Assembly (NCBI RefSeq): GCF_002072155.1
Contig: NZ_BDIY01000016.1
Location: 1 to 64,000, forward strand
DNA length: 64,000 nt
Source of the DNA: Roseovarius sp. A-2
GTDB lineage: Bacteria > Pseudomonadota > Alphaproteobacteria > Rhodobacterales > Rhodobacteraceae
Reading direction: 5' to 3'
The notes beneath the pieces were generated by a model. That model was not told the DNA's origin. It saw only the letters and a list, made by a program, of their open reading frames with translations, and ran no database searches. Both the position numbers and the translations under genes were made by a program. How positions within the stretch are numbered: the first letter of the stretch is position 1; every line of letters starts with the position of its first letter. Below are positions 40,809-64,000 of the stretch, in pieces.

Positions 40809-42032
40809 CTACGCCGCGCCACCCAACGCCCGCCGCAATCCGGTCAGCAGCGTTTCCGCCCCCAGTTCCGAGCGGAAATGCGCCTCGACATGGGCGCGCC
40901 CCGCCTTTGACAGCCGCGCGCATAGGTCTTGGTCGGCGGCCAACGCAGCAATGGCATCGGCCAAGGCCTCGGGCGATTGCGGCGGCACCAGCATCCCCGT
41001 TTCGCCATGGGTGATCAATTCGCGCACCCCGCCCGCATCGGTGCCGATGGTGGGCACCTCGCAGGCCATCGCCTCCATGTAGGCCACGCCCAGCGGCTCG
41101 TGCCAGCTGGCCAGCACGAAGACATCTGCCGCCAGCAGGTGCCGCCGCACCTCTGCCGCGCTGACCGCCCCCAAGAGACGCGCGTGCCCTTCAAGCCCCA
41201 GCGCCTCCAAATGGTGCTGCAACTCGAGGTGATAGCCGCCGCCACCGGCATCGTCCTCTCCAGCTATATCGAGCTGCACCTCGACACCCCGGTCGAGCAG
41301 CAGCCGCAGTGCCGACAACAGATCCTGATGCCCCTTGACCACGTTGAGCCGCCCGCAGGCAAAAAGCCGCAGCGGCGCACCGGGCGCAGGCACTTCATAG
41401 GGCGTCTCGCGCCGGAAATCCTCGGTATCGACACCCATCGGGCGCACCACCACATCGCCGGGCATGTCCGCGCCCAGCACCGCCTCAGCCTCGGTCAGAA
41501 GCTTGCGGGTGATGATCGTGGCAAAGCGCGCGTGCCGCCACTTGAAGCGCTGGCCGGGGCCGTAATCCGACAACGGCCCGTGCAGCGTCAGGCTGTAGCT
41601 TGGGCCCCCCATGCGCCGCGCCAGCGCGCAAATGAGCGCCGCGCGCCCGCAGCTATGGGCATGCACATGGGCGATGCCCCGCGCGCGGCAATTCGCAATC
41701 AGCGCTCGCGCAGCAGGCAGGCAGATCACCACATCACGCAGAAAGGCACGGCCCCCAGCTTCGCGCAGGATCTCGCCCCAGGGTGCGCGCAGCGCCGCGA
41801 CTGCCGCCGCTGCGACATCTGCCTTGCCCAGATAGGTGGTCCGCGCCATCGCCGCCTCAGACCACTCATGCGAGATCAGACCTTCGGGCGGCGGCCGCGT
41901 GCTCAGAATATGTGGGGCAACGCCCAACCTCTCCAATTCCGCCAGTTCGCGCCAGAAGAAGATATGCGTCTGCCCCGGAAACTGCGGCACGAGATAGCCT
42001 AACGGCAAGGTCTGGGGCATGTCTTCGGGCAT
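40809..42032 (-). CDS. glycosyltransferase family 4 (exopolysaccharide type)
   Basis: A 407-residue GT-B enzyme. YLVPQFPGQTHIFFWRELAEL is the N-terminal start typical of exopolysaccharide GT4 proteins. HVHAHSCGRAALICALARR follows, and the donor-binding domain shows FACGRLNVVKGHQDLL, LLGAVSAAEVRRHLLAADVFVLASWHEPLGVAYMEAMA with the EX7E motif, and GGVRELI. It transfers a sugar from a nucleotide or polyprenyl donor, retaining configuration. It is divergent from the GT2 gene at 42125 (92-base gap) and marks the left edge of the surface-polysaccharide locus. Confidence 0.9.
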   Translation of the reverse strand: MPEDMPQTLPLGYLVPQFPGQTHIFFWRELAELERLGVAPHILSTRPPPEGLISHEWSEAAMARTTYLGKADVAAAAVAALRAPWGEILREAGGRAFLRDVVICLPAARALIANCRARGIAHVHAHSCGRAALICALARRMGGPSYSLTLHGPLSDYGPGQRFKWRHARFATIITRKLLTEAEAVLGADMPGDVVVRPMGVDTEDFRRETPYEVPAPGAPLRLFACGRLNVVKGHQDLLSALRLLLDRGVEVQLDIAGEDDAGGGGYHLELQHHLEALGLEGHARLLGAVSAAEVRRHLLAADVFVLASWHEPLGVAYMEAMACEVPTIGTDAGGVRELITHGETGMLVPPQSPEALADAIAALAADQDLCARLSKAGRAHVEAHFRSELGAETLLTGLRRALGGAA

Positions 42033-42124
42033 TTCGGGTTCCGCACGGGCCGGGTTTGCGGCTATGGCTTAGCACAAAGCCCCGCCCGACGCATAGGGCG
42101 GCCCTCACTTGAACTGGAAACCCT

Positions 42125-42970
42125 GTGTTGACCGACGCGCAAAAACCGACGCTCAGCGTGATCGTCCCCGCCCATAACGAGGCGGGGCTGATCGGTGCCT
42201 GCCTGCGCGCGCTTTTTGCGTCGCAGCCCGTGCCCGGTGGAGCAGAGGTGATCGTGGTGGCCAATGGCTGCACCGATGGAACCGCCGCCGAGGCACACGC
42301 CTGCACAGAGGCGGCCATGGCGCGCGGCTGGCACCTCCTCGTGCTGGAGCGCGCGCAAGGCGGTAAGCCGGGTGCGCTCAACACGGGCGAGGCGATGGCA
42401 CGCGGACGGGTGCTGGCCTATCTCGACGCCGACGTGATCGTCTCGCCCGCGCTCTGCGTTGAACTGGTGCAGGTGCTTGACCGCGACGCCGCCGCCTATG
42501 CCAGCGGGCGCGTGGTAATCCCGACACCCGCGAGCGCATTCAGCCGCGCCTATGCGCGATTCTACTGTCAGGTGCCGTTCTTTCACCACGGCGTACCGGG
42601 CTGCGGGCTGTTCGCGATGAACCGCGCGGCGCGTGCGCGGTGGGGCGAGTGGCCCGCGATCATCTCGGACGACACCTTCGCCCGGCTGCATTTTGTAACC
42701 GCCGAGCGCATCGTCGTGCCCGCCCCCTATGACTGGCCCATCGTGGAAGGCTTCGGCGCGCTGGTGCGTGTCCGCCGCAGACAGGATGCGGGAGTGTCCG
42801 AGATTCGGCGACTCTACCCGGCGCTCCCGGCCAATGACGACCCGCGCCCCTCAGGGCCCGGATGGGTGATACGCGCTGGCCTGCGTGCGCCTCTCGGCTT
42901 TGTCGCCTATGTCGTCGTCGCCCTTGCCACGCGCCTGCGTCGGGGCAAGGGCTGGGCGCGCGGTCGCTGA
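42125..42970 (+). CDS. glycosyltransferase family 2
   Basis: A 281-residue GT-A enzyme starting with GTG at 42125. LSVIVPAHNEAGLIGACLRAL, VANGCTDGTAA, and the acceptor-metal motif YLDADVIVS (DxD) are clear. The middle is Ala-rich, and a hydrophobic segment near the C-terminus (LGFVAYVVVALATRL) could be a membrane contact. It probably adds a sugar in the polysaccharide repeat unit. It reads toward the flippase gene 126 bases downstream. Confidence 0.85.
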   Translation: MLTDAQKPTLSVIVPAHNEAGLIGACLRALFASQPVPGGAEVIVVANGCTDGTAAEAHACTEAAMARGWHLLVLERAQGGKPGALNTGEAMARGRVLAYLDADVIVSPALCVELVQVLDRDAAAYASGRVVIPTPASAFSRAYARFYCQVPFFHHGVPGCGLFAMNRAARARWGEWPAIISDDTFARLHFVTAERIVVPAPYDWPIVEGFGALVRVRRRQDAGVSEIRRLYPALPANDDPRPSGPGWVIRAGLRAPLGFVAYVVVALATRLRRGKGWARGR

Positions 42971-43024
42971 CCCCCACGCCATCCCCAGGCTCGGCCCGAG
43001 GATCCGCCACCCCTAAAAACCACA

Positions 43025-43052
43025 CGATTTCAATGGAATTGCCGTGAAATCG
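43025..43052. promoter_or_regulatory. inverted repeat upstream of the flippase gene
   Basis: CGATTTCA (43025-43032) and TGAAATCG (43045-43052) are eight-base arms with a 12-base spacer, 45 bases before the flippase ATG. The half-site is the same as the core of the palindrome at 38425-38446. Confidence 0.4.
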
Positions 43053-43096: not shown

Positions 43097-44464
43097 ATGC
43101 GCGCCGCAACACGAGTATTTTCCGGCGAAGGGCTGCTCGCCCGGGCGCTGCGCTCATCGGCGCTGACCGTGGCCGGATTCGGTGTCTCGCAGATCCTGCG
43201 GCTGGCCTCGAACCTGATCCTCACCCGGCTGCTCTTCCCCGAGGCTTTCGGCATAATGGCCATCGTCAACGTGGTCATCCAGGGGCTGATGCAATTCTCC
43301 GACGTGGGCATCAGCCCCGCCATCATGCAAAGCAAACGCGGCGACGATCCGGCCTTTCTGAACACCGCCTGGACCATCCAGCTTCTGCGCGGGGTGGCGC
43401 TGTTCTTCATCGCATGCGCGTTGGCCTGGCCGCTGGCGTGGTTTTATGACGAGCCGCTGCTCCTGCAAATGCTGCCGGTCGCGGGCCTCGGCCTGCTGCT
43501 GGCAGGTTTCTACCCCACCGCGCTCGATACCGCCAAGCGGCACCTGCGGTGGGGGCGAGTCACGGCGGTCGATTTCGGTGCGCAGATTACCGGCATCGTG
43601 ATCGGCATCGCGCTCGCGTGGTGGCTGCAATCGGTCTGGGCGCTGGTCATTTCCAATGTAATCGCGACGGGCGTGACACTTTTGTTTTACTGGCTCACCC
43701 TGCCCGGCGCGCGCAACCGCCTAGGCTGGGAACGCCCGGCCCTACGCGAGATGGTAACGTTCGGGCAGTGGATATTTCTCAGCACGATCTGCGGCTTTCT
43801 GTTTAACCAGGCCGACAAGCTGATCTTGGGCAAGTATCTCAGCTTCGAGGTGTTCGGCGTCTACAATATCGGCTTCTTTCTCGGCTCCTTTCCGATGCTT
43901 CTGGGCAACCTCTTTACTTGGCGGCTGCTGATCCCGATCTACCGCGAACTGCCCCCCGGCGACAGTCCGCAGAACTTCGCCAAGTTGCAGCGCATGCGCT
44001 TTGCCGTCACGTCGGGACTGACCGCGCTCACCGCCGGGTTCGCGTGTCTTGGCGTCTGGCTCATCGGTATTATGTATGATGATCGTTACGCGATGGCGGG
44101 GGCCGTCGTGGTGGTGATGGCCGCGATGCAAATCCCGCAGATCATCGTGATGACCTATGATCAGGCCTCGCTCGCGGCGGGCGATTCGAAACGCTTTTTC
44201 GTGCTGACGCTGGCCAAGGCGGTGGCGATGATCGCGGCTCTCCTGCTCGGCCTTGAGTGGGGCGGGCTCCTGGGGGCGCTGCTCAGCTACGGGGCGGCGA
44301 TGGTCGTGGCCTATCCGGTCGTTGTCTGGCTAGCGCGGCGCATGAATGCCTGGGATCCACTGCATGACGCGGTAATGGCCGGGCTGGGCCTCGGCGTGGC
44401 CGTGCTGGCCTTCTGGCTTAATGGGTCCGCGATTGCCGATCTCGCGGCGCTTTCAGGCTGGTGA
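43097..44464 (+). CDS. oligosaccharide flippase (Wzx-like)
   Basis: A 455-residue integral membrane protein of the polysaccharide-exporter (MVF/MOP) superfamily with about 12 to 14 hydrophobic segments. ILRLASNLILTRLLFPEAFGIMAIVNVV is the typical N-terminus, and QADKLILGKYLSFEVFGVYNIGFFLGS is the second conserved block. It should flip undecaprenyl-linked repeat units across the inner membrane. AAAGAGGACC precedes the ATG. It is followed by the polyketide synthase gene after 112 bases, so the export step and the assembly-line genes are on one strand and could share regulation. Confidence 0.9.
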   Translation: MRAATRVFSGEGLLARALRSSALTVAGFGVSQILRLASNLILTRLLFPEAFGIMAIVNVVIQGLMQFSDVGISPAIMQSKRGDDPAFLNTAWTIQLLRGVALFFIACALAWPLAWFYDEPLLLQMLPVAGLGLLLAGFYPTALDTAKRHLRWGRVTAVDFGAQITGIVIGIALAWWLQSVWALVISNVIATGVTLLFYWLTLPGARNRLGWERPALREMVTFGQWIFLSTICGFLFNQADKLILGKYLSFEVFGVYNIGFFLGSFPMLLGNLFTWRLLIPIYRELPPGDSPQNFAKLQRMRFAVTSGLTALTAGFACLGVWLIGIMYDDRYAMAGAVVVVMAAMQIPQIIVMTYDQASLAAGDSKRFFVLTLAKAVAMIAALLLGLEWGGLLGALLSYGAAMVVAYPVVVWLARRMNAWDPLHDAVMAGLGLGVAVLAFWLNGSAIADLAALSGW

Positions 44465-44576
44465 TCCGGTCACCGCATGACACCGGAATTGCCAAGCCGA
44501 TGCCGCAAAACCGTCGCATTGTGGAGAGATACGGGAACTCTTATGATTTCATCAATGTTCATTATTGGCCGGTGAC

Positions 44577-47500
44577 ATGAGCATGTCCGATCCGAGCGGC
44601 ACCGAAATCGCCATCGTCGGCATGGCCGCGCATCTGCCCGGTGCGCGGACCGTGGCCGAGTATTGGCGGAACCTGCGCGCCGGACACCGCGCCATCCGTC
44701 GGCTGAGCGAGGCCGAGTTGCTGGCCGCCGGTGAGGCCCCGCAGACCCTGCGACGCCCTGATTACGTGCCTTTTGCCGCGCCGCTCGACGGGTTCGAGAT
44801 GTTCGATGCCGAGTTCTTCGGCTTCGGACCCAAGGAGGCCGCGATCCTCGACCCACAACACCGCCGCTTTCTGGAGGTCGCGTGGGAGGCGCTGGAGGAT
44901 GCGGGCCACATGCCCGAGACCTTTCCCGGCCCCATTGGCGTCTTCGCGGGCTGCGGCATGGGGAGTTATTTCTATTTCAACCTCTGTTCCAACCGCGATC
45001 TGGTCGACGATGTCGGGTTGTTCCTGTTGCGCCATACCGGCAATGACAAGGATTTCCTGACCACCCGACTCAGCCATATCCTCGATCTCAAGGGGCCATC
45101 GCTCGGCTTGCAGACCGCTTGCTCCACCTCGCTCGTTGCGGTGCATTATGCCGCACAATCGCTCTTGAATGGCGAATGCGACATGGCGCTGGCGGGCGGC
45201 GTGACAATCGAGCTGCCGCAGAACCGTGGCTATATTCACAAGCAGGGCGAGATCCTGTCGCCCGACGGCGAATGCCACGCCTTTGATCACCGCGCGCAGG
45301 GCACGGTCTTTGGTTCCGGCGCGGGCATGGTGGCGCTGCGTCGGCTAGAGGATGCACTGGCCGACGGCGATCACATCTGGGGCGTGATCAAGGGCTCTGC
45401 GGTCAATAATGACGGCGCGGCCAAGGCGGGCTATCTCGCGCCTTCGGTCGACGGTCAGGCAGCGGCGGTGGCCGAGGCGCAGGCGGTAGCGGGCGTCACG
45501 GCGGACACCGTGGATTATGTCGAATGTCACGGCACCGGCACTTATCTCGGCGACCCGATCGAGGTGGCGGCGCTGACACAAGCGTTCCGCGAGACGACCG
45601 AGGCAAGCGATTTCTGCCGCATCGGCAGCGTAAAGACCAATATCGGCCATCTCGACACCGCAGCGGGCGTCGCCAGCCTGATCAAGGCCACACTTGCGCT
45701 CTATCACGGCGAAATGCCGCCCTCTCTGGGATACGAGGCCCCAAACCCCGCCATCGCCTTTGAGGGCAGTCCGTTCTCGGTCAATGACTGCCTTAGCCCT
45801 TGGCCCAAACGCGACCATCCCCGCCGCGCCGGGGTGAATTCCCTGGGCGTCGGCGGCACCAACGCCCATGTCGTGCTGGAAGAACCGCCCGCCCGTGCCG
45901 CCCCCGAAGACAGCGACTGGCCGTTTCAGCCTATCGTGCTCTCCGCGCGCTCGAAATCCGCGCTGGACGATGCCACCACCCGTCTGGCCGCCCATCTGCG
46001 CGAAAACCCCGAACAGCCGCTGGCCGATGTAGCCTGGACCCTCAAGCAGGGCCGCCGCGCGTTCGAGCGTCGCCGCATTACCGTCGCCCGCACCCATGCC
46101 GAGGCCGCCGACCGGCTCGACAAGGGCGACGCCCGCCGCGTCTTCACCCATCAGGCGCTCGACAACCCCGATGTGGTCTTCATGTTCCCCGGCGGCGGCG
46201 CGCAATATGCCAGGATGGCGCGCGACCTCTACGAGACCGAGCCGGTCTTTGCCGACTGGATGGATCGCGGCCTCGATATCCTCGCGCCCAGGCTTGATTA
46301 CGACATCCGCGCGCTCTGGCTGCCTGACCCCGATCAGGTGGCGGCGGCGGACGCGCGCCTCAAACGCCCCTCGGTGCAATTGCCGCTGATCATGATCACC
46401 GAATATGCGCTGGCCCAACTCTGGCAGAGCTGGGGGGTGACCCCTGCGGCCCTGATCGGCCATTCCATGGGCGAGAACACCGCCGCCTGCCTCGCCGGTG
46501 TCCTGAGCCTTGAGGATTGCATCGGCCTGGTGCATCTGCGCGGGCAACTCTTCGACACTGTTGACAAGGGCGGCATGCTCAGCGTGCCGCTGTCCGCTGA
46601 CGCCCTGAAATGCTATCTCGGCGCACATCTCGACATTGCCGCGCTCAACGCCCCCGACCTTACCGCCGTCTCGGGGCCGCAGGCCGCGCTCGACGATCTC
46701 GACACCCGCCTGCGCGCCGAGGGGATCGAGCCGCAGCGCATCGCCATCGACATCGCCGCCCATTCCCGCATGCTCGAGCCCATCCTTGAACGCTTCGGGG
46801 ACTACCTGCGCTCGATCCAGTTGAGCCCGCCGCAAATTCCAATCCTGTCAAACCGTTCGGGCGATTACCTCACGGCAGAAGAAGCCACCGATCCCGCCTA
46901 TTGGGTCGATCATCTGCGCCATACCGTGCGCTTCGCCGACGGCCTCACCCGGCTGAGCGAGACGTCGGCCCGCGTCTTCCTCGAGGTCGGCCCCGGCAAG
47001 GCGCTCTCGTCGCTGGCACAGGCGCATGGCGCGATCAGCGCCAATCAGGTCATTGGCACCCTGCGCCACCCTGAGGACAGCATCGCCGACGACGAATATT
47101 TCATCGCCATGCTGGCCCGTCTCTGGGCCGTGGGGGTCGAGATCGACTGGCCGCAGATCTGGGGCGAGGCAACGCGCAACCGTGTGCCGCTACCCTCCTA
47201 TGCCTTTCAGCACAAACCCTATTTCATCGCCCCCGGCGTGCCCCGCGCGACGGCAGAGGACGATTGGCCCACTCATCGCGACACCCTCACCGACTGGGGC
47301 TACACGCCCCATTGGCAGCCCCGGCTGGCGGAGGTCGAAATCACGTCTGACGCCGACCTTGCGCAACTGCCCAAGCAGACATGGCTGGTCTTCGAGGACG
47401 ACACCGGCCTTGCCCGCGCCGTGGCCGGGCGCCTCAGCGCCGCGGGCCATACCGTCACCACCGTTACACCCGGCGACAGCTTCGCGCGATTGGAGGAAGG

Positions 47501-50500
47501 GCGCTACACCCTCTCACCAGAACGCGGGCGCGAGGGCTATGACCAGCTGATACGCGCGCTTGTCGCAGACAACCGCGCGCCTACACGCATCGCGCATTTC
47601 TGGCTGGTCACCCGCAACGAGCGTCACCGCCCCGGCTCCAGCTTCTTCCACCGGGTGCAGGAACAGGGCTTCTACAGCCTGCTCTTTCTGGCGCAGGCCG
47701 TGGGCGACGAGGGGCTGGACACGCCCTTGCATATCACCGCCTTCACCACCGGTGCCGCCCAAACCCGTGACGAGGCGCTGCCCTACCCGGCCAAATCCAC
47801 GCTCGCAGGCCCCTTGCGCGTGATCCCGCGTGAGATGCCGCATGTGACCACCGCCAGCCTCGACCTGACCCTGCCCGCGCGCGGCGCGCCCGATGCGGGG
47901 CTTGTGACCCGCGTGCTCGAGGATCTTCTGCAAGCCCCCCACACGCATGAGGCCGCCCTGCGCGGCGCCCGCCGCTACGAGATGGCATGGCGCGCCACGG
48001 ACCTCGCGACCGGCAGCGCCCCGATTGCCCAGGGCGACTCCGTGCTGATCACCGGCGGTTTCGGCGGCATCGGTCTGACGCTGGCCGAGGATCTGATCAC
48101 GAAAAACCGCGCCAATATCGTGCTGATGGCCCGCCACGCCCTGCCGCCCCGCGCCGACTGGCCCCGGATCACCGCGACGCGCGGTGCCGCCGACCCGCTC
48201 GCCCGCCGCATCGCCGCCGTGAGCCGCCTCGAGGCGCTTGGCGGCGAGGTCATGGTGGTGGCAGGCGATGTCAGCAATATCGAGGACATGCAGGCCGCAC
48301 GCTCCGAGATCGAGACGCGCTTTGGCCGCCTGAACGGCATCATCCATGCCGCCGGTGTCATCGCCGACGCACCCCTGTTGGCCAAGGGGCCGGACACGAT
48401 CGAGGATGTGTTCACACCCAAGATCCACGGCACCCAGGTGCTGGAGCAGGTCTTTCCAGATGGCACGCTCGACTGGCTGGTGCTGTTTTCGTCCTCCTCG
48501 ACGGCCACCGCGCCTGCCGGACAGGTCGATTACGTCGCCGCCAACGAATATCTCAACGCCTATGCCCGGTCCCGAGCGGGCGGGCGCACCCGCGTGCTGG
48601 CGCTCGACTGGGGCATCTGGGCCGAGGTCGGCATGGCCGCCGAGGCCGTGGCACAGCAGACCGGCACCATTCCCGCCGCCCCGCGCCTGCCGGTCGATCA
48701 CCCGCTGATCGACGCGGTCAGCTTCGACGCCGAAGGCAACCGCGTCTTTCACGCAAGCTACAGCGCCGCCACCCATTGGGTGTTCGATCAGCACCGTACG
48801 CGCGACGGTCAGGCGCTCATGCCTGGCACCGGCTATCTCGACCTGCTGGCACAGGCGCTGTGCGCGCAGGGCGAGGACAGCCCGTTCGAGATCCGCGATC
48901 TGATTTTCCTGCGCCCCTTCGACCTCGCTAAAGGGGCCACGCGCGAGATGCGCCTTACCTTGACCCGCAGCGATCAGGGTTACGCCGCCCGGATCGAGGC
49001 CAACCACCTTCAGGCGGGCCGCACAGGTTGGATCACTCTGGCCGAGGCCGATCTGCGCCTACTGCCGCTCACACCGCCTGCGCCGCTCGACATCACCACC
49101 ATGCGCTCACGTATGGAGAGTTGGGACGAGGCCACCACCGATCCCCTGCCCTCCCCGCAAGAGGCGCATCTCGATTTCGGCCCCCGCTGGCGCGTGCTCA
49201 TGGCGCGCGGGCTTGGCCCGGGCGAGGGTCTCGCCCATCTGCGCCTGCCCGCCGAGGCGCAGGGCGATCTGGCGGCAGGCCATCTTCTGCACCCCGCCCT
49301 GATGGATATCGCCACCGGCTGGGCGATGGGGCTGATCGAGGGCTATGACGGCAGCGATCTCTGGGTGCCGATGTCCTATGGCGCGCTGCGGGTGCATGCG
49401 CCGCTAGGGCAGGATATTTACAGCATCGCACGGCTGACCACCGGTCAGGCCCAGGAGACCGGCATCGCCCGCTTTGACATCACGCTCACCGATTCCGCCG
49501 GTCAGGTACTGGTCGAAATCACCGATTTCGCCATTCGCAAACAGGCGGGCGGGTTGGCGATCACCCCGCCCCGCGCGGGCGAAATCCGCTTTGACGCAAG
49601 CGTCGACACCACCCCCGACAGCCCCGCCGAAGAACGCCTGCGCCACAACCTGCGCGAAGGCATCCGGCCCAGTGAGGGTGCCGAGGCGTTCCGCCGTGCG
49701 CTCGCCCTCGGTCAGCCGCAGGTGCTGGTCTCCTCGCTCGATCTGCCCGCGCTGATCCGTCAGGCCGAGGCGGGCCCGCAAGGAGCCGACGAGGGCGGCC
49801 AGCGGTTCGAGCGGCCCGATCTCGACGGCGATTACATGGCACCAAAGGGCGAGATCGAGGCCCGGCTCGCGGGCTTCTGGTCCGATCTTCTCGGCCTCGA
49901 CCCGGTCGGCGTCGAAGACAGCTTCTTCGATCTTGGCGGCCATTCACTGATCGCCGTGCGGCTCTTCGGCATGATCCGCAAGGCCTACCGCGTCGATTTC
50001 CCGATCTCGATCCTGTTCGAGGCCCCGACCATCCGCGCCTGTGCGCGCCTGATCGAGGCCCGCATCGGCCCGCAACAGGCGGGCGACAGCGCGCCCGCGA
50101 CATCCGCACCGGCCCGCCGCTTCACCCATCTGGTGCCGATGCATCGCGGCGAGGGGGGGCCGAAAACGCCCTTCTTCCTTGTCGCGGGCATGTTCGGCAA
50201 CGTCCTCAACCTGCGGCATCTGGCGCATCTTCTGGGCGATGACCGGCCGTTCTTCGGGCTTCAGGCGCGCGGGCTCTACGGCGACGACGCGCCGCATGAC
50301 GACCTGACCGAAGCCGCGCGCGACATGATCGCCGAGATCCGTCAGGTGCAGCCGCATGGCCCCTATCTGCTTGGCGGCTTCTCGGGTGGCGGCATCACCG
50401 CCTACGAGATGGCACAGCAGCTTGAGGCAGCGGGCGAAACGGTGGCGGTGGTGATCCTGCTCGACACGCCGCTGCCGCAACGCCGCCCGCTGTCGCGCCG

Positions 50501-50975: not shown

Positions 50976-51940
50976 CCGGCCCCCGCGTCCTGACCATCGT
51001 GCTCAACTGGCGCACGCCCGAGATGACACTGAAGGCCGCACGTGCCGCGCAGCGCGCCATGGTCGATATCGCGGGCGAGATCGTCATTATCGACAATGAT
51101 TCCGGCGATGGCTCTTTCGAGAAAATGCAATCGGAAACAAGGGATTGGAACCGGGTGCGCGTGATACAATCCGGCCATAACGGCGGCTTTGGTGCGGGCA
51201 ATAACGCAGGCATACGCGCAGGGTTCTCGGACGGCACGCGTCCCGATTACACCTATATCCTGAACTCCGATGCCTTTCCGGCCGAAGATGCCATCGCCAA
51301 GCTGCTGGCGCATCTTGAGGCGACACCCAGTGCCGGGCTGGCGGGAAGCCATATCCACGGGCCCGAGGGCAAAAGCCATGTCACCTGCTTTCGCTTCCCG
51401 TCGATCCTGGGCGAGTTCGAGGGTGCCGCGCGCATCGGCACATTCAGCCACCTGTTGCGCCGTCACATCGTACCCCTTCCGGTACCCGAGACCACGCAGC
51501 CCGTCGACTGGCTGGCAGGCGCAAGCCTGATGATCCGGCAGGACGCGCTCGACGAGATCGGCGGTTTCGACGAAACCTTTTTTCTCTATTTCGAGGAAAC
51601 CGACCTCTGCCTCCGTGCCGCGCGAGCGGGCTGGCAGACGCATTACGTGGCCGGATCCCACGTCGAGCATATCGGCTCGGTCTCCACCGGCATGAAGAGC
51701 TGGGGCCGGGTGCCGGACTACTGGTTCGCGTCGCGCCGATATTATTTCATCAAGAACCACGGGCGCGGCTATCTCGCGCTCGTCACGCTGGCACATCTGA
51801 CGGGTGCGGGCCTCGGCAGCCTGTGGCGGCTGATCCGGCGCAAGGGCGCACCGCGCCCGCCGCATTTCCTGCGCGATCTGGTGCTGGGTGACCTGGGCCT
51901 TACGCTGCGGGGCACGAATGAACGAAAGGCGGACGCATGA
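50972..51940 (+). CDS. glycosyltransferase family 2 (rhamnosyltransferase-like)
   Basis: A 322-residue GT-A enzyme. VLTIVLNWRTPEMTLKAARAA, VIIDNDSGDGS, NGGFGAGNNAGI, and YILNSDAFP as the metal-binding region, then WLAGASLMIRQDALDEIGGFDETFFLYFEETDLCLRA, are hallmarks of the rhamnosyl/galactofuranosyl-type group (key residues E-DLC-R). It is overlapped by four bases at both ends: with the polyketide synthase before it and the NRPS-like gene after it. This tight coupling is the strongest hint that the acyl product and a sugar are joined, or are made for the same polymer. Confidence 0.88.
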   Translation: MTGPRVLTIVLNWRTPEMTLKAARAAQRAMVDIAGEIVIIDNDSGDGSFEKMQSETRDWNRVRVIQSGHNGGFGAGNNAGIRAGFSDGTRPDYTYILNSDAFPAEDAIAKLLAHLEATPSAGLAGSHIHGPEGKSHVTCFRFPSILGEFEGAARIGTFSHLLRRHIVPLPVPETTQPVDWLAGASLMIRQDALDEIGGFDETFFLYFEETDLCLRAARAGWQTHYVAGSHVEHIGSVSTGMKSWGRVPDYWFASRRYYFIKNHGRGYLALVTLAHLTGAGLGSLWRLIRRKGAPRPPHFLRDLVLGDLGLTLRGTNERKADA

Positions 51941-56436: not shown

Positions 56437-57110
56437 GCCTGACCGACGCATTGCGCGCCATGCTGCCACCCGGCACAGCACTCGGGCAGGCCGATCCGAC
56501 CGCCCCCCCGATCGACCTCATGCCCGAGGAACAGGCGACGATGATCCGCGCCATTCCCGCCCGGATGCGTGAATTCGCCGCCGGACGCCGCGCCGCGCGC
56601 GCGGCCATGACCTCGCTTGACCTACCTTCCGCACCGATCCCGCAAGGCCCCGACCGCGCCCCGATCTGGCCGGAAGACCTAACCGGCACGATCAGCCACG
56701 GCGCGGGTGTATGTTTTGCCGTCGTCGCGCGCAGGAGCGATCTTGCCGGGGTCGGCCTCGATCTCGAACCGGCCTCACCCTTACCCGCGGATCTGATAGA
56801 TACGGTCTGCACCCCGCAAGAGCACGCGCGCCATACCTCGCCCCTCGCCGCGCGACTGATTTTCTGCGCCAAGGAGGCCACCTACAAGGCGCAATATGCC
56901 CGGAGCGGTGCTCTGCTCGAATTTCAAGATCTGACGATCACGCTCACGGCCGACGCGACCGGGTTCACCGCCATGCTGACACGCCATTGCCCGCCATTCC
57001 CCCGACGCACCGCATTTTCCGGGCATCTCGTGATCGCGGACGGGATCGTTGCCGCGCTTGTGACCCTGCCCAACCAAATCAACACAGTGTTTCCGGATCG
57101 CGGTCATTAA
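56433..57110 (+). CDS. Sfp-type 4'-phosphopantetheinyl transferase
   Basis: A 225-residue protein with the two family signatures: GVGLDLEPASPLP (metal-binding Asp/Glu) and FCAKEATYKAQY. It converts the apo carrier domains of the neighbouring polyketide synthase and NRPS-like protein into the holo form. The start overlaps the NRPS stop by four bases (ATGA). Finding a dedicated transferase at the end of this run shows that the assembly line is complete in itself and was probably acquired or maintained as a unit. Confidence 0.93.
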   Translation: MSLTDALRAMLPPGTALGQADPTAPPIDLMPEEQATMIRAIPARMREFAAGRRAARAAMTSLDLPSAPIPQGPDRAPIWPEDLTGTISHGAGVCFAVVARRSDLAGVGLDLEPASPLPADLIDTVCTPQEHARHTSPLAARLIFCAKEATYKAQYARSGALLEFQDLTITLTADATGFTAMLTRHCPPFPRRTAFSGHLVIADGIVAALVTLPNQINTVFPDRGH

Positions 57111-57293: not shown

Positions 57294-58595
57294 ATGAGTT
57301 CAATCAAATCCCTGCCCGATGTGATGCGGATGCTGCGGCGCAGGCTGTGGCTGATCATCCTGGTCGCGCTGATCGGCTCGGTTGTTTCGGTGATCGTCGC
57401 GCTCAACCAGCCCAAGGCCTACGAGGCAACGGCGGTCATCCAGATCGAGACCCCGCAGGTCGACCGTGACGGCCGCAGTCAGATCATCGGCAGCGATGCG
57501 CGCCACCGCGTGCAACTGATCGAGCAGCGGCTGATGTCGCGCGATCACCTGATCAAGATCATCGACCGTCACGAGCTGTTTGCCGATGCCACTGCGATGC
57601 CGATGGGCGAGAAGATATACCAGTTGCGGATCTCGGCCCGGATCACACCGATCACCGTCAGCGTGCCTGCCGCGGGTCCCGCCGCCAGCATCCCTTCGGG
57701 GCTTAGCATCACGGTAAAGCTGGGCGACCCGCAGAAGGCCGCCAATGTCGCCAATGACTTTGTCGATACGGTGATCGCCCAGAACCGAGAGCGCCGCATG
57801 CAAACCGTGCGCGAGACGCTGGATTTCTACAACGCCGAAGAAGCCCGCGTCGAGGCGCGCATCGTAGCGTTGGAAGAGGAGATCGCAGAGTTCAAGCGCG
57901 CCAATGCCGACGCCCTGCCCGCCAATATGGGGCCGATGCGCGACCAACTCGGGACATTGCAGGAAGCGCTCTTGAACATCGAGCAGCAGATCATCACGCT
58001 GGAAACCGAAAGCGTCCGGCAACGGCAGGAAGTTTTCGATCGCCAGATCGGGCAATTGACCGAACAACGCGACCTCGTCGCGCGCCGCATCGCCGAAATA
58101 GAGACGGCCATCGAGGCGACGCCGAGCGTCGAGCGCGAATTGGCCGCGTTGAACCGCGCGCTTGGACAATTGCAGGAACAGCTTGACACGATCATTCGCA
58201 ACCGGGTCGAGGCCGAAATCGCCAGCGTTCTCGAAAGCCGTCAGCAACAGGAACGGTTCGAAATCCTAGAGACCGCCATTCCACCCGAGTTCCCGGTATC
58301 TACGAGCCGCAAGAAACTCGCGCTTGCGGGCGGAATCGCCAGCCTCATGCTGGGGCTCATACTGGCGCTTGTCTGGGAAATCATGAACCCGGTGCTGCGC
58401 ACTTCCGCGCAGGTCAGGGAGGAGCTTGACATCACCCCGGTCGTCTCGATCCCAGTCGTGCCGGTGCGCGGCGAATTGCGCGCGCGCCTGCTGAAACGGC
58501 TCGGTGCGCTGGTTCTGATCGTGCTGATCCTGCCGGTCCTGATTCGCCTCGTTCAGGAAAGGCTGATGCCGCTGCGCCAGCTTGGCGGCAACTGA
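57294..58595 (+). CDS. polysaccharide chain-length determinant (Wzz/GumC-like)
   Basis: A 433-residue protein with N- and C-terminal transmembrane helices (LWLIILVALIGSVVSVIVAL at about 19-38; ALAGGIASLMLGLILALVWEI and a second, LGALVLIVLILPVLI, near the end) and a long periplasmic coiled coil (about 180-310). PQVDRDGRSQIIGSDARHRVQLI and VPAAGPAASIPSGLSITVKLGDPQKAA belong to the Wzz domain. It controls polymer length with a tyrosine kinase; here the kinase is a separate gene on the opposite strand, whose stop lies six bases away. The 183 bases upstream probably hold its promoter. Confidence 0.88.
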   Translation: MSSIKSLPDVMRMLRRRLWLIILVALIGSVVSVIVALNQPKAYEATAVIQIETPQVDRDGRSQIIGSDARHRVQLIEQRLMSRDHLIKIIDRHELFADATAMPMGEKIYQLRISARITPITVSVPAAGPAASIPSGLSITVKLGDPQKAANVANDFVDTVIAQNRERRMQTVRETLDFYNAEEARVEARIVALEEEIAEFKRANADALPANMGPMRDQLGTLQEALLNIEQQIITLETESVRQRQEVFDRQIGQLTEQRDLVARRIAEIETAIEATPSVERELAALNRALGQLQEQLDTIIRNRVEAEIASVLESRQQQERFEILETAIPPEFPVSTSRKKLALAGGIASLMLGLILALVWEIMNPVLRTSAQVREELDITPVVSIPVVPVRGELRARLLKRLGALVLIVLILPVLIRLVQERLMPLRQLGGN

Positions 58596-58601
58596 GCCGG
58601 G

Positions 58602-59618
<1,017 letters not shown>

Positions 59619-59780
59619 GGACACCCCCCCATGCGCGACCGCGCGCCGGGGCGCGTGCCATGCATCATCAAGAGGCGAGCCAGTGCTGCCATATCCGGGG
59701 TCTCCTGCCAGTTGCGCCCGGTATGCCGCCAAATTCCGGCAACAATGCGACGGAAAATCACTGATTATATGCCCCGTGGC

Positions 59781-61889
59781 TCAGAACCCCAACAGGTTGG
59801 CCCGGTCCACCGCCTCTTGCAGAAACGCCTCGCGCTCCGCCACCGGGGCCCAGCCCAAAAGCGCCTTGGGCTTGGCATTGTCAAACCGCGCGTAATGCGC
59901 CCGTGATTTCCAGTCGCGCAGCGAGGCGCGGATCACGCCGGGCCGGCGCAGCGCATGGGTCTTGAGCACGGATTTCGCCGCATCCGACGCCCAGAGCGCC
60001 GTCAGGTTGCCCGAACTCACCCGCAGACGCGCCCCCAGCCGCAGGTGAATGGCGTTGAAATAGCTGCGCGCCGAGGGTTGCACATCGCCGATCAGATTGA
60101 AGGACTGCCCCACGGAAGCCGCACTCTCGCCCATCCGTATGAGCGCGTCCGAGACATCGCCGATCAGCACGAAGGGCAGCGGGTTGTCGCCCTCTCCCCA
60201 GAGCCGCACCGCCCCCGCCCCGTGCCAGCGCCCGATGCCCCAATGCTGCAACGGCCCGCCATGGCCCACGACGATGCCGGGCCGCGCGATGCTCAGCGGC
60301 AGGCCATGGTCGCGCCGCATTTCCCATAGCCGCCGCTCGCATTCCGCCTTGGACCGGGCATAGAGATTGCGGTCGCTCATATCGGGCGCAAAGGGTGTGG
60401 ATTCGGTGATCACCGTCGCGGGATTCGACATGTCATAAGAGGCAATCGTGCCGGTGTAGACAAAGCGTTTGACGCCAGCCGCCAGCGCCGCCCGCGCAAT
60501 GCGGTCCGAGACGCCGATATCGTTCTCCAGACAGTCCTGCCACGAGGTGCCAAGCGCGCGGGCGAGGTTATAGACCACCTCGACCCCCTCCATCGCGCAG
60601 GTGAGGCCACCTTCGTCGCGCAAGGAGACGGCGCAGGTCTCGACCCGCTCGGGCAGATCATCGAACGGCCCATGCGCCCCCCGCGACAGCACCCGCACAT
60701 CATGGCCCTGCGCCACCAGCGCGCGCGTCAGGTCGCGGCCCAGAAACCCGGTACCGCCGATCACCAGCGCCGTGGGCTTCGGCTTGCGGCGCGGCTTGGG
60801 GCGGCGCAGGATCTCGCGCCCCTGATCCGGCATCAGCGCAATGGTGGCGTCAATCGCGCGCATCACACCCTCGGCCGCCGCGCCGTCAAAGCGTGAATCG
60901 AGGGGTCGACCCTCCCGGATCGCACCATAGAACTCCTCGAACAGACCCATGAACCCTAGCGCATAAGGCGACTTGCGGTTCAGCGATCCGACCTGCCGCA
61001 CAGCATTGGCCACGCCTTCACGCAGATGCCCCCAAACCCCGCCCATCTGCCGCAGGAACGGGTTGAGCACCAGATCGGCAGTGTTCTCACGCTCCACCAC
61101 CAGCACATCCGCCGCGTAATCCAGCCGCGCCAACCCCGAGGAGCCGCGCAGGGTGAGCGAGCGATCGTCAATGCTCTCGACCAGTTGCAGGTTGATCGCC
61201 AGATCAACCTCCCCCGCCTCTGCCGTGATCCGCCAACTCTGCGGGCGGGTGCCCGCGCCGGGCAGCTGCACGGGCTTCGATAGGTGCAGGCCCGTCACCG
61301 TCACGGGGCCAAAGAGATCGTGCGCGAAGGCAAAGAGATGCGGCCCCAGCTCGCGCAGAAGGTTCCCCGGCTCACGCAGCATCCACAACCCGAACGGTCC
61401 AGAGCGCAGCGGCCCCAGCGGAAAGGCCCAAGCGATCTCGGCGCTCGACACCCGGCCCAGATCGCCCGCCGCAACCTGCGCCTTGAGGCGCTGATAGGCG
61501 GGCAGCCCGAGGAAATTATGCCCGGCGGCAAGGTGACGTCCGGCGGCGCGCGCCGCCTCGGTCAGGCTGGCCGCCTCTTTCCCCGAGAGCGTCACCGGCT
61601 TTTCCACCAGCACATGCAGCCCGGCACCGAGGCATTTGCGCGCCAGTGCGGCGTGACTGTCGGGCGGCGTCAGGATATGCACCGCCTCGACCGCGCCGCT
61701 TGCAATCATTTCGTCGAGCGACGTAAAGGCTCGCGCCCCATGCGCGCCCGCCAGCCCCTCGGCCGCCGAGGCCGACAGATCACAGACCGCCGCCAGCCGA
61801 GCCCCGGGCGTCAGCCGCAGCGCCGCCGCGTGCCAGCCCGCGATATAGCCCGCGCCGACAAGCCCCACATTGATCGTCTTATCCGTCAT
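59781..61889 (-). CDS. Gfo/Idh/MocA oxidoreductase fused to NAD-dependent epimerase/dehydratase
   Basis: A 702-residue two-domain protein from the ATG at 61889. Residues 1-370: Gfo/Idh/MocA dehydrogenase, with VGLVGAGYIAGWHAAAL binding NAD(P) and the catalytic-site stretch VLVEKPVTLSGKEA (EKP). Residues about 395-702: extended SDR with ALVIGGTGFLGRDLTRAL, YNLARALGTSWQDC, and the YxxxK motif in YARSKAECERRL. Both parts act on nucleotide- or free sugars in known families, so the fusion could oxidise and then epimerise or reduce the same sugar without release. It lies 10 bases downstream of a GT2 gene in a minus-strand operon. Confidence 0.9.
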   Translation of the reverse strand: MTDKTINVGLVGAGYIAGWHAAALRLTPGARLAAVCDLSASAAEGLAGAHGARAFTSLDEMIASGAVEAVHILTPPDSHAALARKCLGAGLHVLVEKPVTLSGKEAASLTEAARAAGRHLAAGHNFLGLPAYQRLKAQVAAGDLGRVSSAEIAWAFPLGPLRSGPFGLWMLREPGNLLRELGPHLFAFAHDLFGPVTVTGLHLSKPVQLPGAGTRPQSWRITAEAGEVDLAINLQLVESIDDRSLTLRGSSGLARLDYAADVLVVERENTADLVLNPFLRQMGGVWGHLREGVANAVRQVGSLNRKSPYALGFMGLFEEFYGAIREGRPLDSRFDGAAAEGVMRAIDATIALMPDQGREILRRPKPRRKPKPTALVIGGTGFLGRDLTRALVAQGHDVRVLSRGAHGPFDDLPERVETCAVSLRDEGGLTCAMEGVEVVYNLARALGTSWQDCLENDIGVSDRIARAALAAGVKRFVYTGTIASYDMSNPATVITESTPFAPDMSDRNLYARSKAECERRLWEMRRDHGLPLSIARPGIVVGHGGPLQHWGIGRWHGAGAVRLWGEGDNPLPFVLIGDVSDALIRMGESAASVGQSFNLIGDVQPSARSYFNAIHLRLGARLRVSSGNLTALWASDAAKSVLKTHALRRPGVIRASLRDWKSRAHYARFDNAKPKALLGWAPVAEREAFLQEAVDRANLLGF

Positions 61890-61899
61890 AAGAAACCGC

Positions 61900-62853
61900 T
61901 CACTTGTATTCGATGATCCGCATCGCCGCCCCGCGCCGCTTGCGCGCATAATAGGTCAACATGCCGATCAGGTTGGGAAATTTCGACAGCGCCAAGAACA
62001 CCGCATGATGCAGCGCGGTGCCGGTCGCCAGCCCCGCGCCGCGCAGCCCCTGCACCGTCTTGGTATACGACAAGAGATAAGCCGCGAGGACCAGCACCAG
62101 CAGCGGTCCCCAGACCAGCCCGGCCAATGCCAGCACCGGCAACCCGAGACCATAAATCCAGACCCGCGTCCGTTCACGCGTGAAATAGCCCGGCTGCAGG
62201 TCGCCCACCTGCGCAAAGCCATGCCCCGAACGCACCGCGCGCCGCCACCACTGGCCAAAGCGCGTCATCGCGGCATCGTGCCGGGTCATCGGCAGGGGCA
62301 GACGCCGCAGCCCCCATCCCGCCTTGCGCAGCCTTTGGCAAAACTCGTCATCCTCGGCCGCGATCACCTGCGCGTCAAATCCCCCGGCTTCGATATAGGC
62401 CGCACTGCGCACCATCATGTCACCACCACAGGCCGTGATCCTGCCCGCCGGGCGATGCCATTCGTGATCGCAAAGCGCGTTGTAGACCGAGGCGTCAGGG
62501 GCCATCTCCGACCGCCAGCCGGTGACGAGCCCAAGGTCCGGGTCGTCCTGCAAAGCCGCAAACCCCGCCTCGATCCAGCCCGGCACCACGGTGCAATCAC
62601 CGTCGATGAATTGCACCACTTCGGGCGGCATCGGCCCAAGCGCCTCGAACCCCGCATGGCGCGCCCGCGCGGCGGTAAAGGGCGCGGCGGGGTCCAGGTC
62701 TACCACCTGCGCGCCCGCTGCCCGCGCCGCCGCCACGCTGTGATCGGTAGAGCCGCTATCGACATAAACCACGCGCCGTCCGTCGAGCGAGGCCAGCGAC
62801 GCCACGAGCCGCGCCCCCTCATTGCGGCCGATCAGCACCACGGCGAGGGTCAT
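61900..62853 (-). CDS. glycosyltransferase family 2, membrane-associated
   Basis: A 317-residue GT-A enzyme. It begins VVLIGRNEGARLVASLASL, shows YVDSGSTDHSVA, the metal-binding FIDGDCTVVP, and DDEFCQRLR as the acceptor-side motif. Two hydrophobic segments near residues 235-265 (GLPVLALAGLVWGPLLVLVLAAYLL) probably attach it to the inner membrane. It belongs to the ExoA-like group that extends exopolysaccharide repeat units. Its start overlaps the stop of the upstream GT4 gene by four bases. Confidence 0.88.
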   Translation of the reverse strand: MTLAVVLIGRNEGARLVASLASLDGRRVVYVDSGSTDHSVAAARAAGAQVVDLDPAAPFTAARARHAGFEALGPMPPEVVQFIDGDCTVVPGWIEAGFAALQDDPDLGLVTGWRSEMAPDASVYNALCDHEWHRPAGRITACGGDMMVRSAAYIEAGGFDAQVIAAEDDEFCQRLRKAGWGLRRLPLPMTRHDAAMTRFGQWWRRAVRSGHGFAQVGDLQPGYFTRERTRVWIYGLGLPVLALAGLVWGPLLVLVLAAYLLSYTKTVQGLRGAGLATGTALHHAVFLALSKFPNLIGMLTYYARKRRGAAMRIIEYK

Positions 62854-64000
62854 GCGCGCCTCTCCGGTCTGAGGGTTTCGGGCGGCGTGCCGGTCGCATA
62901 GCCCTCAAAAAGCCGCGCCAGCCATGCCGCCTCGCTGTCGGAGGCGAACTCTTCGACCACCCGCGCGCGCCCGGCCTCGCCCATGCGACGGCGCAGCGCC
63001 GGATCGCCCAGCACCCGCGTCAGCGCCGCGCGCAGCGCCACCGCGTCACCGGGCGACACCAAGAGCCCGCTTTCCCCGTCCTCGACCAGTTCCGCCACGC
63101 CCGCGATGCGCGTCGTCACCACCGGCACGCGGGCGGCCAATGCCTCCATCAGCACCACAGGCAGCCCTTCGGCGAAACTTGGCAGGACCAGCGCGGTCGC
63201 CTCGTGAAGCAATGCCGCCACCTCGTCTTGCGATTTGTAGCCGACGAAGTCCACATGATCCCCAAGGCCCTGCGCCCGTGCCTGCAAACATTCACACTCC
63301 GGCCCGTCGCCGACCAGCGTCAGGCGCAAATCCGGATGATCCGCGATCAGTTCCTGCATGGCCTCCAGCAGCACCGGCACACCCTTGACCGCCGCCATCC
63401 GCCCGACGAAGAGAAGATGCGCGGGCGCGTCCGGCGCAGGCCCGTCATAGCGCGCGGGGTCAACCCCGCAGTGCACGATATGCAGCTTGCTCCAATGCTC
63501 AGGGCTTGAAAACGCCATCGCCTGCGAGCGGGCAAAATGGCTGATGCAGGCCACAAACCGCGCCCGCGCGATCTTTTCATCCAGCCGCCAGCGATAGGAG
63601 TCAAAGAAAATATCCGGCCCGTGCAGGGTGAAACTGTAGGGAATGCCCGACATTTCCGAGGCCAGCATCGCGACCGTGCAACTCGACTTGGCGATGTGGT
63701 TATGCAGATGCGTCAGGCCCCGCGCGCGCAAATGCTGTGCCAGCACGGCGGCCTCGGCGAGGTAGATGAATTGATAGAGCGTCGGCTTGATGCCGCCCGG
63801 GCGTGTCCGCCACGCCAGCCGCAGCGCCCGCAGCCAGGCGACCGGCCTGCGCCATGCCGCCAGATGCGCCGCGATCAGGCCGCGTGGCGAGAGGGACGCC
63901 TCCAGCACATGAAACGTGCCCGCTGCCTCTGTCCGCTGCTCTGGTCCGGTGTGATGATCCGTCCCGGTGCGGCGCATCGAACAGGTCTCGACCGTCAGGC
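62850..64000 (-). CDS. glycosyltransferase family 4, 5' end beyond the window
   Basis: At least 383 residues; the frame stays open to the right edge, and the segment LTVETCSMRRTG directly upstream of the internal ATG at 63977 fits the family, so the true start lies outside. The C-terminal domain shows LLFVGRMAAVKGVPVLLEAM, GDGPECECLQ, FVGYKSQDEVAALLHEATALVLPSFAEGLPVVLMEALA with the EX7E motif, and GVAELVEDGESGLLV. The middle LHNHIAKSSCTVAMLAS and FTLHGPDIFF are colanic-acid/WcaL-like. First visible gene of the minus-strand GT4-GT2-fusion operon. Confidence 0.9.
   Translation of the reverse strand, partial: LTVETCSMRRTGTDHHTGPEQRTEAAGTFHVLEASLSPRGLIAAHLAAWRRPVAWLRALRLAWRTRPGGIKPTLYQFIYLAEAAVLAQHLRARGLTHLHNHIAKSSCTVAMLASEMSGIPYSFTLHGPDIFFDSYRWRLDEKIARARFVACISHFARSQAMAFSSPEHWSKLHIVHCGVDPARYDGPAPDAPAHLLFVGRMAAVKGVPVLLEAMQELIADHPDLRLTLVGDGPECECLQARAQGLGDHVDFVGYKSQDEVAALLHEATALVLPSFAEGLPVVLMEALAARVPVVTTRIAGVAELVEDGESGLLVSPGDAVALRAALTRVLGDPALRRRMGEAGRARVVEEFASDSEAAWLARLFEGYATGTPPETLRPERRA

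What the first reader, a model, noticed from the sequence alone, without database searches (positions are those of the whole stretch)
40809..64000. Surface-polysaccharide locus with a built-in polyketide/NRPS-type assembly line
Sugar transfer (two GT4, three GT2), flipping, chain-length control, tyrosine kinase and a sugar-modifying fusion surround four overlapping genes: a PKS, a GT2, a formyltransferase-adenylation-monooxygenase-PCP protein and a PPTase. ATGA overlaps at all three junctions mean co-expression. The GT2 is locked between the PKS and the NRPS-like gene. Inference: the products are an acyl group and/or a formylated, oxidised aminoacyl group attached to a sugar, giving a decorated polysaccharide or a glycolipid exported by the flippase. 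I do not know a characterised system with this set.
Basis: partly seen in the sequence, partly recalled or inferred. Interest (0 to 1): 0.85.

Follow-up and report, generated by a model that had tools for sequence, protein, structure and literature searches.

The report
PKS/NRPS cassette inside exopolysaccharide loci
A small antibiotic-style assembly line sits inside a slime-polysaccharide gene locus and recurs beside sugar genes in many related bacteria, which suggests that it makes a special chemical group for the cell's outer coat, although no product has been shown.

Summary
A PKS (KS-AT-KR-DH-ACP-TE), a GT2, a formyltransferase/truncated-C/adenylation(+inserted monooxygenase)/PCP protein ("FTA") and a PPTase overlap by ATGA inside a Wzx/Wzy-type exopolysaccharide (EPS) locus of a Roseovarius-like bacterium; Wzy and the initiating transferase lie on another contig.

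FTA is in 109 of 295 sampled genomes of the family; 108 of these also have a PKS match. Of 86 fetched loci, 79 hold EPS genes, against 1 of 20 control stretches. The one long exception (Aliiroseovarius M344) puts an FTA relative directly before KS-AT-KR-DH-ACP-C-A-PCP-TE, suggesting that the chain runs from FTA to PKS. Catalytic residues are almost invariant. The A-domain code is one residue from that reported for glycine modules with an inserted monooxygenase.

Best reading: N-formylglycine, probably oxidised, is loaded by FTA, extended by the PKS and attached to the EPS repeat. Attachment, acceptor and exact acyl group are inferred. It does not fit RkpA/WcbR-like capsule PKSs, and the GT2 is not locked in place. 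Listings and passages I saw do not describe the set. A conserved "-AAE" C-terminus on the PKS suggests a binding motif.

The parts
40809..42032 (-). GT4 glycosyltransferase, EpsE family (EPS locus, left end)
   Evidence: Pfam glycosyl transferases group 1; NF041876 611 bits against cut-off 400
42125..42970 (+). GT2 glycosyltransferase; homologues in 42 of 86 loci
   Evidence: PF00535; one search counts
43097..44464 (+). Wzx-like MOP flippase
   Evidence: PF13440 2.1e-49
44565..50975 (+). Type I PKS, KS-AT-(pseudoKR)KR-DH-ACP-TE, one module; ends in -AAE
   Evidence: active sites; tail
50972..51940 (+). GT2 glycosyltransferase of the four-gene run, ATGA overlaps both sides
51937..56436 (+). FTA: formyltransferase (1-290), truncated condensation remnant (291-490), glycine-type adenylation domain (about 495-730 and 1100-1365) with LLM/MOX monooxygenase inserted (737-1087), PCP (about 1390-1458), basic C-terminal tail
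56433..57110 (+). 4'-phosphopantetheinyl transferase, ATGA overlap with FTA
57294..58595 (+). Wzz-like chain-length determinant
   Evidence: PF02706 38.9 bits against 25.5; TIGR03007 107 bits, below cut-off
58602..59732 (-). P-loop protein like EPS tyrosine autokinases
   Evidence: TIGR03018 71 bits, below cut-off; weak CbiA/ParA
59781..61949 (-). Gfo/Idh/MocA oxidoreductase - NAD epimerase/dehydratase fusion (nucleotide-sugar modification)
61900..62853 (-). GT2 glycosyltransferase
62850..64000 (-). GT4 glycosyltransferase, continues to contig position 64091; followed outside the window by epimerase, Gfo/Idh and WecG-type transferase to about 67,087

Best explanation
The four genes are a compact PKS/NRPS assembly line dedicated to an exopolysaccharide. 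Shown by sequence: the near-invariance of the FT, A, PCP, KS, AT, KR, DH, ACP and TE catalytic residues; a glycine-type code in the A domain; an LLM/MOX domain inserted in it; a truncated condensation domain without the HHxxxD motif; a PPTase-family gene; and linkage to Wzx/Wzy-type EPS genes. Inferred: FTA activates glycine onto its PCP and formylates the amine, so the line starts here; its MOX oxidises the N-formylglycyl thioester, either leaving alpha-hydroxyglycine or cleaving it towards glyoxylate. The PKS KS takes this starter, adds one malonate, reduces and possibly dehydrates it, and the TE releases the C4 acyl unit (4-formamido-3-hydroxybutanoyl or 4-formamidocrotonoyl type, or an oxidised relative) onto a sugar of the EPS repeat at the cytoplasmic face. 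The flippase and polymerase then export and polymerise the decorated repeat. The linkage (ester or amide), the acceptor sugar and the transferase (TE, GT2 or another enzyme) are unknown.
For: EPS linkage: at least one of 13 EPS families in 79 of 86 loci against 1 of 20 arbitrary 20-kb stretches of five genomes that carry the unit; at least three in 68 of 86 against 0 of 20. With only the eight families taken from the window: 70 of 86 against 1 of 20, and at least three in 55 of 86 against 0 of 20. Four non-EPS neighbours of the window (CAF17, Hint2, GT2_39294, exo/endonuclease-phosphatase) ring in 0 of 86. The link is also seen in annotated records of two orders: Ruegeria, Paracoccus, Aminobacter, Shinella. 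Unit: 108 of 109 FTA-bearing genomes have a PKS match; the 25 PKS-positive genomes without FTA have only 31-49% identity, for the 23 whose rows were listed. FTA and PKS distances correlate at r = 0.95 over the window and 69 loci (pairs not independent, shared descent not removed). Chemistry: catalytic residues kept in 78-79 of 79 FTAs and 65-70 of 70 PKSs; code DILQ(M/L)GMIWK in 70 of 79, against the published DILQLGMIWK of four glycine A domains with MOX (PMC12283262). Direction: FT would block the amine and the C domain is a half-size remnant with HHxxxD in 0 of 79; the only TE is on the PKS; M344 has an FTA relative just before KS-AT-KR-DH-ACP-C-A-PCP-TE; the best PDB relative of FTA is the formylating LgrA.
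Against: No acyltransferase gene was recognised next to the unit in the window; attachment to sugar rests on gene neighbourhood alone. A single PKS module with TE could also act iteratively or simply hydrolyse a free acid. MOX with glycine is reported to give terminal amides by cleaving glycine, so its role in a loading module is unexplained. M344 shows that a relative of this line can exist without the tested EPS families within 20 kb. The code position 299 varies (M47, L23, F7, Y1 of 79, one row not printed). Sixteen of 86 loci have none of the eight window-derived EPS families: six are contigs under 11 kb, one is M344, and the other nine (L015, L016, L018, L036, L053, L067, L069, L072, L081) are linked only through Wzy-, WecG-, sugar-transferase- or export-type genes taken from other loci of the set.
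Confidence: 0.5

Rival explanations
1. The line makes a free small molecule (signal, antibiotic or metal binder) whose genes merely travel with, and are co-regulated with, EPS production in biofilms.
For: A homologous line without the tested EPS families in Aliiroseovarius M344, with an extra NRPS module. A genome paper lists a hybrid PKS/NRPS secondary-metabolite cluster on the Paracoccus marcusii plasmid that carries the unit. Possible exporters or receptors occur near single copies: a TolC-family gene beside the PKS in Aminobacter, a type I secretion system in Shinella, an HlyD-like gene in L065 and a TonB receptor in Hyphomicrobium L069, there near a CobB/CobQ-type gene. The TE could hydrolyse.
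Against: 79 of 86 loci hold EPS genes, in two orders and with different gene orders; the exporters and receptor named differ from locus to locus in the regions read, so none looks like a fixed partner (not every ORF was scanned); M344 is a different, longer line at 44% identity.
Confidence: 0.25
2. The PKS works iteratively to make a longer unsaturated or hydroxylated acyl chain that becomes a lipid anchor or glycolipid carrier for the polysaccharide (a role once proposed for RkpA, recalled); FTA supplies a separate aminoacyl cap.
For: Single PKS module with KR and DH but no ER; PKSs occur in capsule loci elsewhere.
Against: Domain order, TE and neighbours differ from the RkpA/WcbR-like PKS examined; no loading module or ligase for a fatty starter in the unit; FTA and PKS are close together and co-distributed, and M344 places an FTA relative directly upstream of the KS.
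Confidence: 0.15
3. The formyltransferase acts on an amino sugar rather than on the PCP-bound glycine, and the A-MOX-PCP part separately provides an oxidised glycine unit for the sugar.
For: Foldseek places the FT domain among ArnA and sugar N-formyltransferases as well as methionyl-tRNA formyltransferases.
Against: FT is part of the NRPS-like protein in the 79 full-length relatives aligned; the whole protein's best PDB hit is the formylating NRPS LgrA. A split FT gene was seen in the Paracoccus CP157 record.
Confidence: 0.1

Closest known systems
LgrA formylating initiation module (linear gramicidin synthetase)
   Same: FT-A-PCP start of an assembly line; best PDB match of the whole FTA; FT catalytic Asn/His/Asp conserved (triad recalled)
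   Different: FTA carries a MOX inside the A domain, a condensation remnant between FT and A, a glycine code (valine in LgrA, recalled), and is tied to EPS genes
Glycine A domains with inserted MOX (MtaG/MelG type, names recalled; code from PMC12283262)
   Same: LLM/MOX of TIGR04020 in a glycine-coded A domain; the published code DILQLGMIWK exactly in 23 of 79 relatives, one residue off in the window
   Different: There the module is at the chain end and frees an amide (end position recalled); here it is fused to FT, lacks a working C domain and appears to start the chain
RkpA/WcbR capsule PKS
   Same: A type I PKS inside a surface-polysaccharide locus
   Different: The RkpA/WcbR-like PKS read here (L103, so named by me from its neighbours) is KS-AT-DH-ER-KR-ACP without TE, next to a class I/II aminotransferase-fold protein and a Capsule_synth protein; the window PKS is KS-AT-KR-DH-ACP-TE and shares 33% identity with it over KS-AT only
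PuwE monooxygenase (PDB 6ket)
   Same: Closest solved relative of the LLM domain (332 bits)
   Different: From a lipopeptide (puwainaphycin) pathway, not an EPS locus (pathway recalled)

Membership tests
RkpA/WcbR capsule PKS | Domain order KS-AT-DH-ER-KR-ACP, no TE (taken from the RkpA-like PKS of L103; no named RkpA or WcbR sequence was compared) | tested here: not met
   window PKS is KS-AT-KR-DH-ACP-TE, no ER
RkpA/WcbR capsule PKS | Adjacent AONS-type aminotransferase and Kps-type capsule genes | tested here: not met
   none among the window and L083 genes scanned; present in L103
LgrA-type formylating initiation module | N-terminal FT with intact catalytic Asn, His, Asp fused to A-PCP | tested here: met
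   N 79/79, H 78/79, D 78/79; LgrA top PDB hit
LgrA-type formylating initiation module | No working condensation domain before A | tested here: met
   about 200-aa remnant, HHxxxD in 0 of 79
LgrA-type formylating initiation module | Formylates its own aminoacyl-PCP with formyl-THF | not testable with these tools
   needs biochemistry
Glycine-MOX amide-releasing NRPS module (MtaG type) | Glycine code with MOX inserted in the A domain | tested here: met
   DILQMGMIWK in the window, read by hand with recalled GrsA positions, one residue from the published DILQLGMIWK; MOX inserted
Glycine-MOX amide-releasing NRPS module (MtaG type) | Working C domain that N-acylates glycine; last module of the line | tested here: not met
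   C domain truncated; no TE on FTA
Wzx/Wzy-dependent EPS locus | Wzx, Wzz-like, kinase-like protein and glycosyltransferases together; Wzy and initiating transferase in the genome | tested here: met
   Wzy-like protein (match row reports one TAA inside) and initiating transferase on contig C2; the kinase match is below its curated cut-off
Siderophore cluster | TonB receptor or siderophore exporter in the conserved neighbourhood | tested here: inconclusive
   no TonB receptor annotated in the five annotated regions; one TonB receptor in L069 beside a CobB/CobQ-type gene; not every ORF of all loci was scanned

The most novel reading that the evidence does not exclude
A widespread PKS/NRPS assembly line, starting from oxidised N-formylglycine, builds a dedicated acyl decoration for exopolysaccharides of alphaproteobacteria, with a conserved C-terminal -AAE peptide on the PKS acting as the docking signal to its acceptor enzyme or complex.
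Probability: 0.4. Interest if true: 0.82.

Novelty: new variant of a known kind. Interest (0 to 1): 0.64.

Why it matters
If true, many genome-mining 'hybrid PKS-NRPS' clusters of Rhodobacteraceae (FTA in 109 of 295 sampled genomes) are not cryptic antibiotics but matrix chemistry, and polysaccharides of a major marine group would carry an acyl group that I found described nowhere in my searches. It would also put a glycine-cleaving type of monooxygenase domain at the start of a chain, and it allows a clear gene-deletion test in culturable strains.

Tried and rejected
RkpA/WcbR membership: rejected on domain order and neighbours. ORF 42062-42691(-) as a conserved unknown: rejected, antisense shadow of a GT2. 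ATGA overlap as the cause of the -AAE ending: rejected, 30 of 66 -AAE PKSs have no ATGA at the stop and codons vary. SGNH-like protein (P0006 family) as the general acyltransferase: homologues in 42 of 86 loci but none in the window's own genome (which had no positive control), so not general. Rfam (gathering threshold) and tRNA scans of the window: nothing. Foldseek of FTA 1-505 showed formyltransferases only in its listed rows; the remnant needed its own model. Paper searches for the gene set: none of the titles and abstract starts listed describes it. Searches listed only 15 of 57, 36 and 57 papers. I saw the outline, abstract and passages of PMC3908369 and passages of PMC8273931, PMC8739492, PMC11253843, PMC12283262, PMC13101523 and PMC9860996; no whole paper. 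The library holds no bioRxiv and few subscription papers.

Rows dropped or moved before counts: L001 and L083 (own genome) from the alignments; ORFs with unknown residues; FTA ORFs under 1350 aa and PKS ORFs under 1900 aa. Six plasmid regions were not because the script did not find their files; five were read and the sixth. In one search a strict script rule put 20 loci in 'GT2 elsewhere'; I moved 13 of them (gap over 500 bp holding the GT2 match) to 'GT2 between' by reading the printed coordinates. The overlap of the FTA and PKS genome lists was counted from handles that I copied into.
Full report
What is there. ORF listing and family scans confirm the reported genes. Four genes overlap by ATGA: PKS 44565-50975, GT2 50972-51940, FTA 51937-56436 and PPTase 56433-57110. 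Around them lie a Wzx-like flippase, a Wzz-like protein, a kinase-like P-loop protein, two GT4, two further GT2 and a Gfo/Idh-epimerase fusion. The ORF at 42062-42691(-) is a shadow of the GT2 at 42125-42970(+). The window is contig C16 positions 1-64000 of a 4.58-Mb, 126-contig genome. On that contig the locus continues to about 67,087 with an epimerase, a Gfo/Idh protein and a WecG-type transferase. A Wzy-like protein (51% identical to the one in L017; the match row reports one TAA inside) and a PF02397 sugar transferase lie together on contig C2; the Pfam Wzy_C family itself did not ring in the genome. The nearest named relatives are Roseovarius (87% in the best FTA segment, R. tolerans); that the genome is Roseovarius-like is my inference. 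Of the ketosynthase matches in the own genome only this one lies in a frame longer than 600 aa.

Anatomy. The PKS is KS-AT-KR-DH-ACP-TE with a pseudo-KR region before the KR. FTA is formyltransferase, condensation remnant, adenylation domain split by an LLM/MOX monooxygenase (TIGR04020, 478 bits, cut-off 244), and PCP. The remnant (291-490) matches the last part of the C domains of McyB, Txo2 and Txo1 in a profile search (E 1.4e-8, 1.4e-6, 1.2e-5). A model of it (mean pLDDT 91.6) has C-domain proteins as its first Foldseek hits, a moderate match (best E 2.7e-5, TM 0.58 by query, rmsd 7.3). HHxxxD occurs there in 0 of 79 relatives. The LLM is closest to PuwE, PDB 6ket. The whole FTA is closest to LgrA. 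The KS-AT is closest to the PKS chains of 8xju and 8xjy; 8xjz, which holds the 8xjy sequence, also holds a peptide synthetase chain.

Conservation. In 79 FTAs (the window and 78 loci) the FT Asn/His/Asp are kept in 79/78/78, the PCP serine and the A-domain lysine in 79. The A code reads DILQ-x-GMIWK with x = M 47, L 23, F 7, Y 1 (one row not printed) and every other position 79 of 79. In 70 PKSs (the window and 69 loci) the KS Cys/His/His, AT Ser, KR Ser/Tyr/Asn, ACP Ser and TE Ser/Asp are 70 of 70, the TE His 69, the DH His 70 with its glycine 65 and proline 69, the DH Asp 70, and the last KR glycines 67 and 66. The code was read by hand with recalled GrsA positions. A 2025 survey reports that four glycine A domains with MOX share DILQLGMIWK and that MOX cleaves glycine to give terminal amides (PMC12283262, passages). 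The AT has IAAH where HAFH is usual (recalled); malonyl is presumed, not shown.

Distribution. A genome-wide search found FTA at E <= 1e-100 in 109 of 295 genomes of the family, nearly all one per genus, and in 7 of 385 genomes drawn over the class, five of them in the window's family. The same family sample had PKS matches in 133 of 295. 108 of the 109 FTA genomes have a PKS match; the miss, G654, is 73% complete. The 25 PKS genomes without FTA show 31-49% identity for the 23 whose rows were printed. Three FTA genomes have only a 44-48% PKS match (G406, G479, G526). In plasmid records 17 have a place covering at least 80% of FTA.

Link to exopolysaccharide. Of 86 loci (L003-L082 and six plasmid regions), 79 hold at least one of 13 EPS families by tblastn at 1e-8, 76 at least two and 68 at least three; 20 arbitrary 20-kb stretches from five genomes that carry the unit give 1, 0 and 0 (positions chosen by me before the test, not by a random generator; the fetched loci average longer or shorter than 20 kb, 4.9 to 44.5 kb). 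Five of the 13 query families were taken from loci of the test set, which favours it. With only the eight families taken from the window the counts are 70, 64 and 55 of 86 against 1, 0 and 0 of 20. Six of the 7 loci without any EPS family are contigs under 11 kb; the seventh is Aliiroseovarius M344. Four non-EPS neighbours from the window's left side are in 0 of 86 (one of them rings once in the controls), and the FTA query itself rings weakly once in the controls (72 bits). The 86 loci are relatives by descent, so they are not independent. Annotated records show the link in Ruegeria conchae, Paracoccus marcusii, Aminobacter niigataensis and Shinella zoogloeoides.

Order of genes and of chemistry. 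Of 78 fetched loci with a full FTA, 69 also have a full PKS ORF in the fetched stretch: GT2 lies between them in 59, PKS and FTA are directly adjacent in 7, and the PKS is on the other strand in 3 (with the correction told in Tried and rejected). So PKS and FTA are the stable pair and the GT2 is a looser member. Of the nine others, L065 (18 kb) has no PKS match at all and L079 is a 7.5-kb contig without one; in the rest tblastn sees PKS pieces. In Aliiroseovarius M344 an FTA relative (44% identity) is followed directly by one protein KS-AT-KR-DH-ACP-C-A-PCP-TE. This fits FTA as loading module. Other support: formylation would block the amine, the C domain is cut, the only TE is on the PKS, and FTA and PKS distances correlate (r = 0.95, 2415 pairs, no correction for shared descent). 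Outside the seven nearest loci the LLM and KS are the most conserved domains (both 76% mean identity to the window) and the C remnant the least (29%).

An unexpected motif. The PKS ends in -AAE in 66 of 70 relatives after a linker of variable sequence, and in 3 of the 6 plasmid regions (L092, L093, L094 yes; L095, L096, L097 no). Codons vary (GCN GCN GAR) and 30 of the 66 have no ATGA at the stop. Among other family ORFs in these loci 8 of 799 end so, two of them probably fragments of the same PKS. FTA has a basic tail with a shared pattern in the 19 rows printed. A C-terminal binding motif is my inference.

What it most likely does, and how sure (my estimates). EPS association: shown, strong. 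FTA to PKS direction: likely (about 0.7). Glycine as substrate: likely (0.75). Product attached to the EPS repeat: more likely than not (about 0.55). Exact acyl group: open (about 0.35 for a single-extension formamido-C4 unit). Rivals are a free metabolite, an iterative acyl anchor, and a sugar-formylating FT.

Novelty. PKSs in capsule loci (RkpA/WcbR) and FT- or MOX-bearing NRPS modules are known kinds; this fusion, the pairing and its EPS home were not described in any listing or passage I saw (searches, some of them capped). For Paracoccus marcusii CP157 a 74-kb hybrid secondary-metabolite cluster is reported on pCP157_02 (PMC8273931, passages); the unit lies on that plasmid, and that it is part of that cluster is my inference. 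I therefore rate it a new variant of a known kind.

Noticed in passing
44565-50975 (C-terminus) and relatives: PKS ends in -AAE in 66 of 70 relatives, with varying codons and with or without an ATGA at the stop: a possible C-terminal binding or targeting motif.
   Followed up: partly
12400-14007(-): Exosortase (EpsH) fused to a Rce1-like protease domain; exosortase XrtD is also annotated in the Ruegeria (L092) and Aliiroseovarius (L096) regions.
   Followed up: no
L096:20001-33740: Aliiroseovarius M344 has an FTA relative followed by a 3082-aa KS-AT-KR-DH-ACP-C-A-PCP-TE protein beside a nosZ cluster: perhaps a free-metabolite cousin of the EPS unit.
   Followed up: partly
L092:25309-26247 and L023:12090-14618: SGNH-like protein (GHSL and DxxH motifs read by eye, no Pfam match over cut-off) right after the PPTase in L092, and in L023 a protein with a similar N-terminus and a long C-terminal part that looks like a glycoside hydrolase by eye; relatives in 42 of 86 loci.
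   Followed up: partly
L094:653-4531 and 19980-24571: Paracoccus marcusii CP157 carries an extra C-A-PCP-TE NRPS in the same EPS region, and its FT is a separate ORF overlapping the A-MOX-PCP gene.
   Followed up: no
L052: A record titled Exiguobacterium profundum isolate SSD5 (a Firmicute name) holds a Rhodobacteraceae-type copy; probably a mislabelled assembly.
   Followed up: no
37271-38344(-): Hint-domain protein (PF13403, 5.7e-50) just outside the EPS locus.
   Followed up: no
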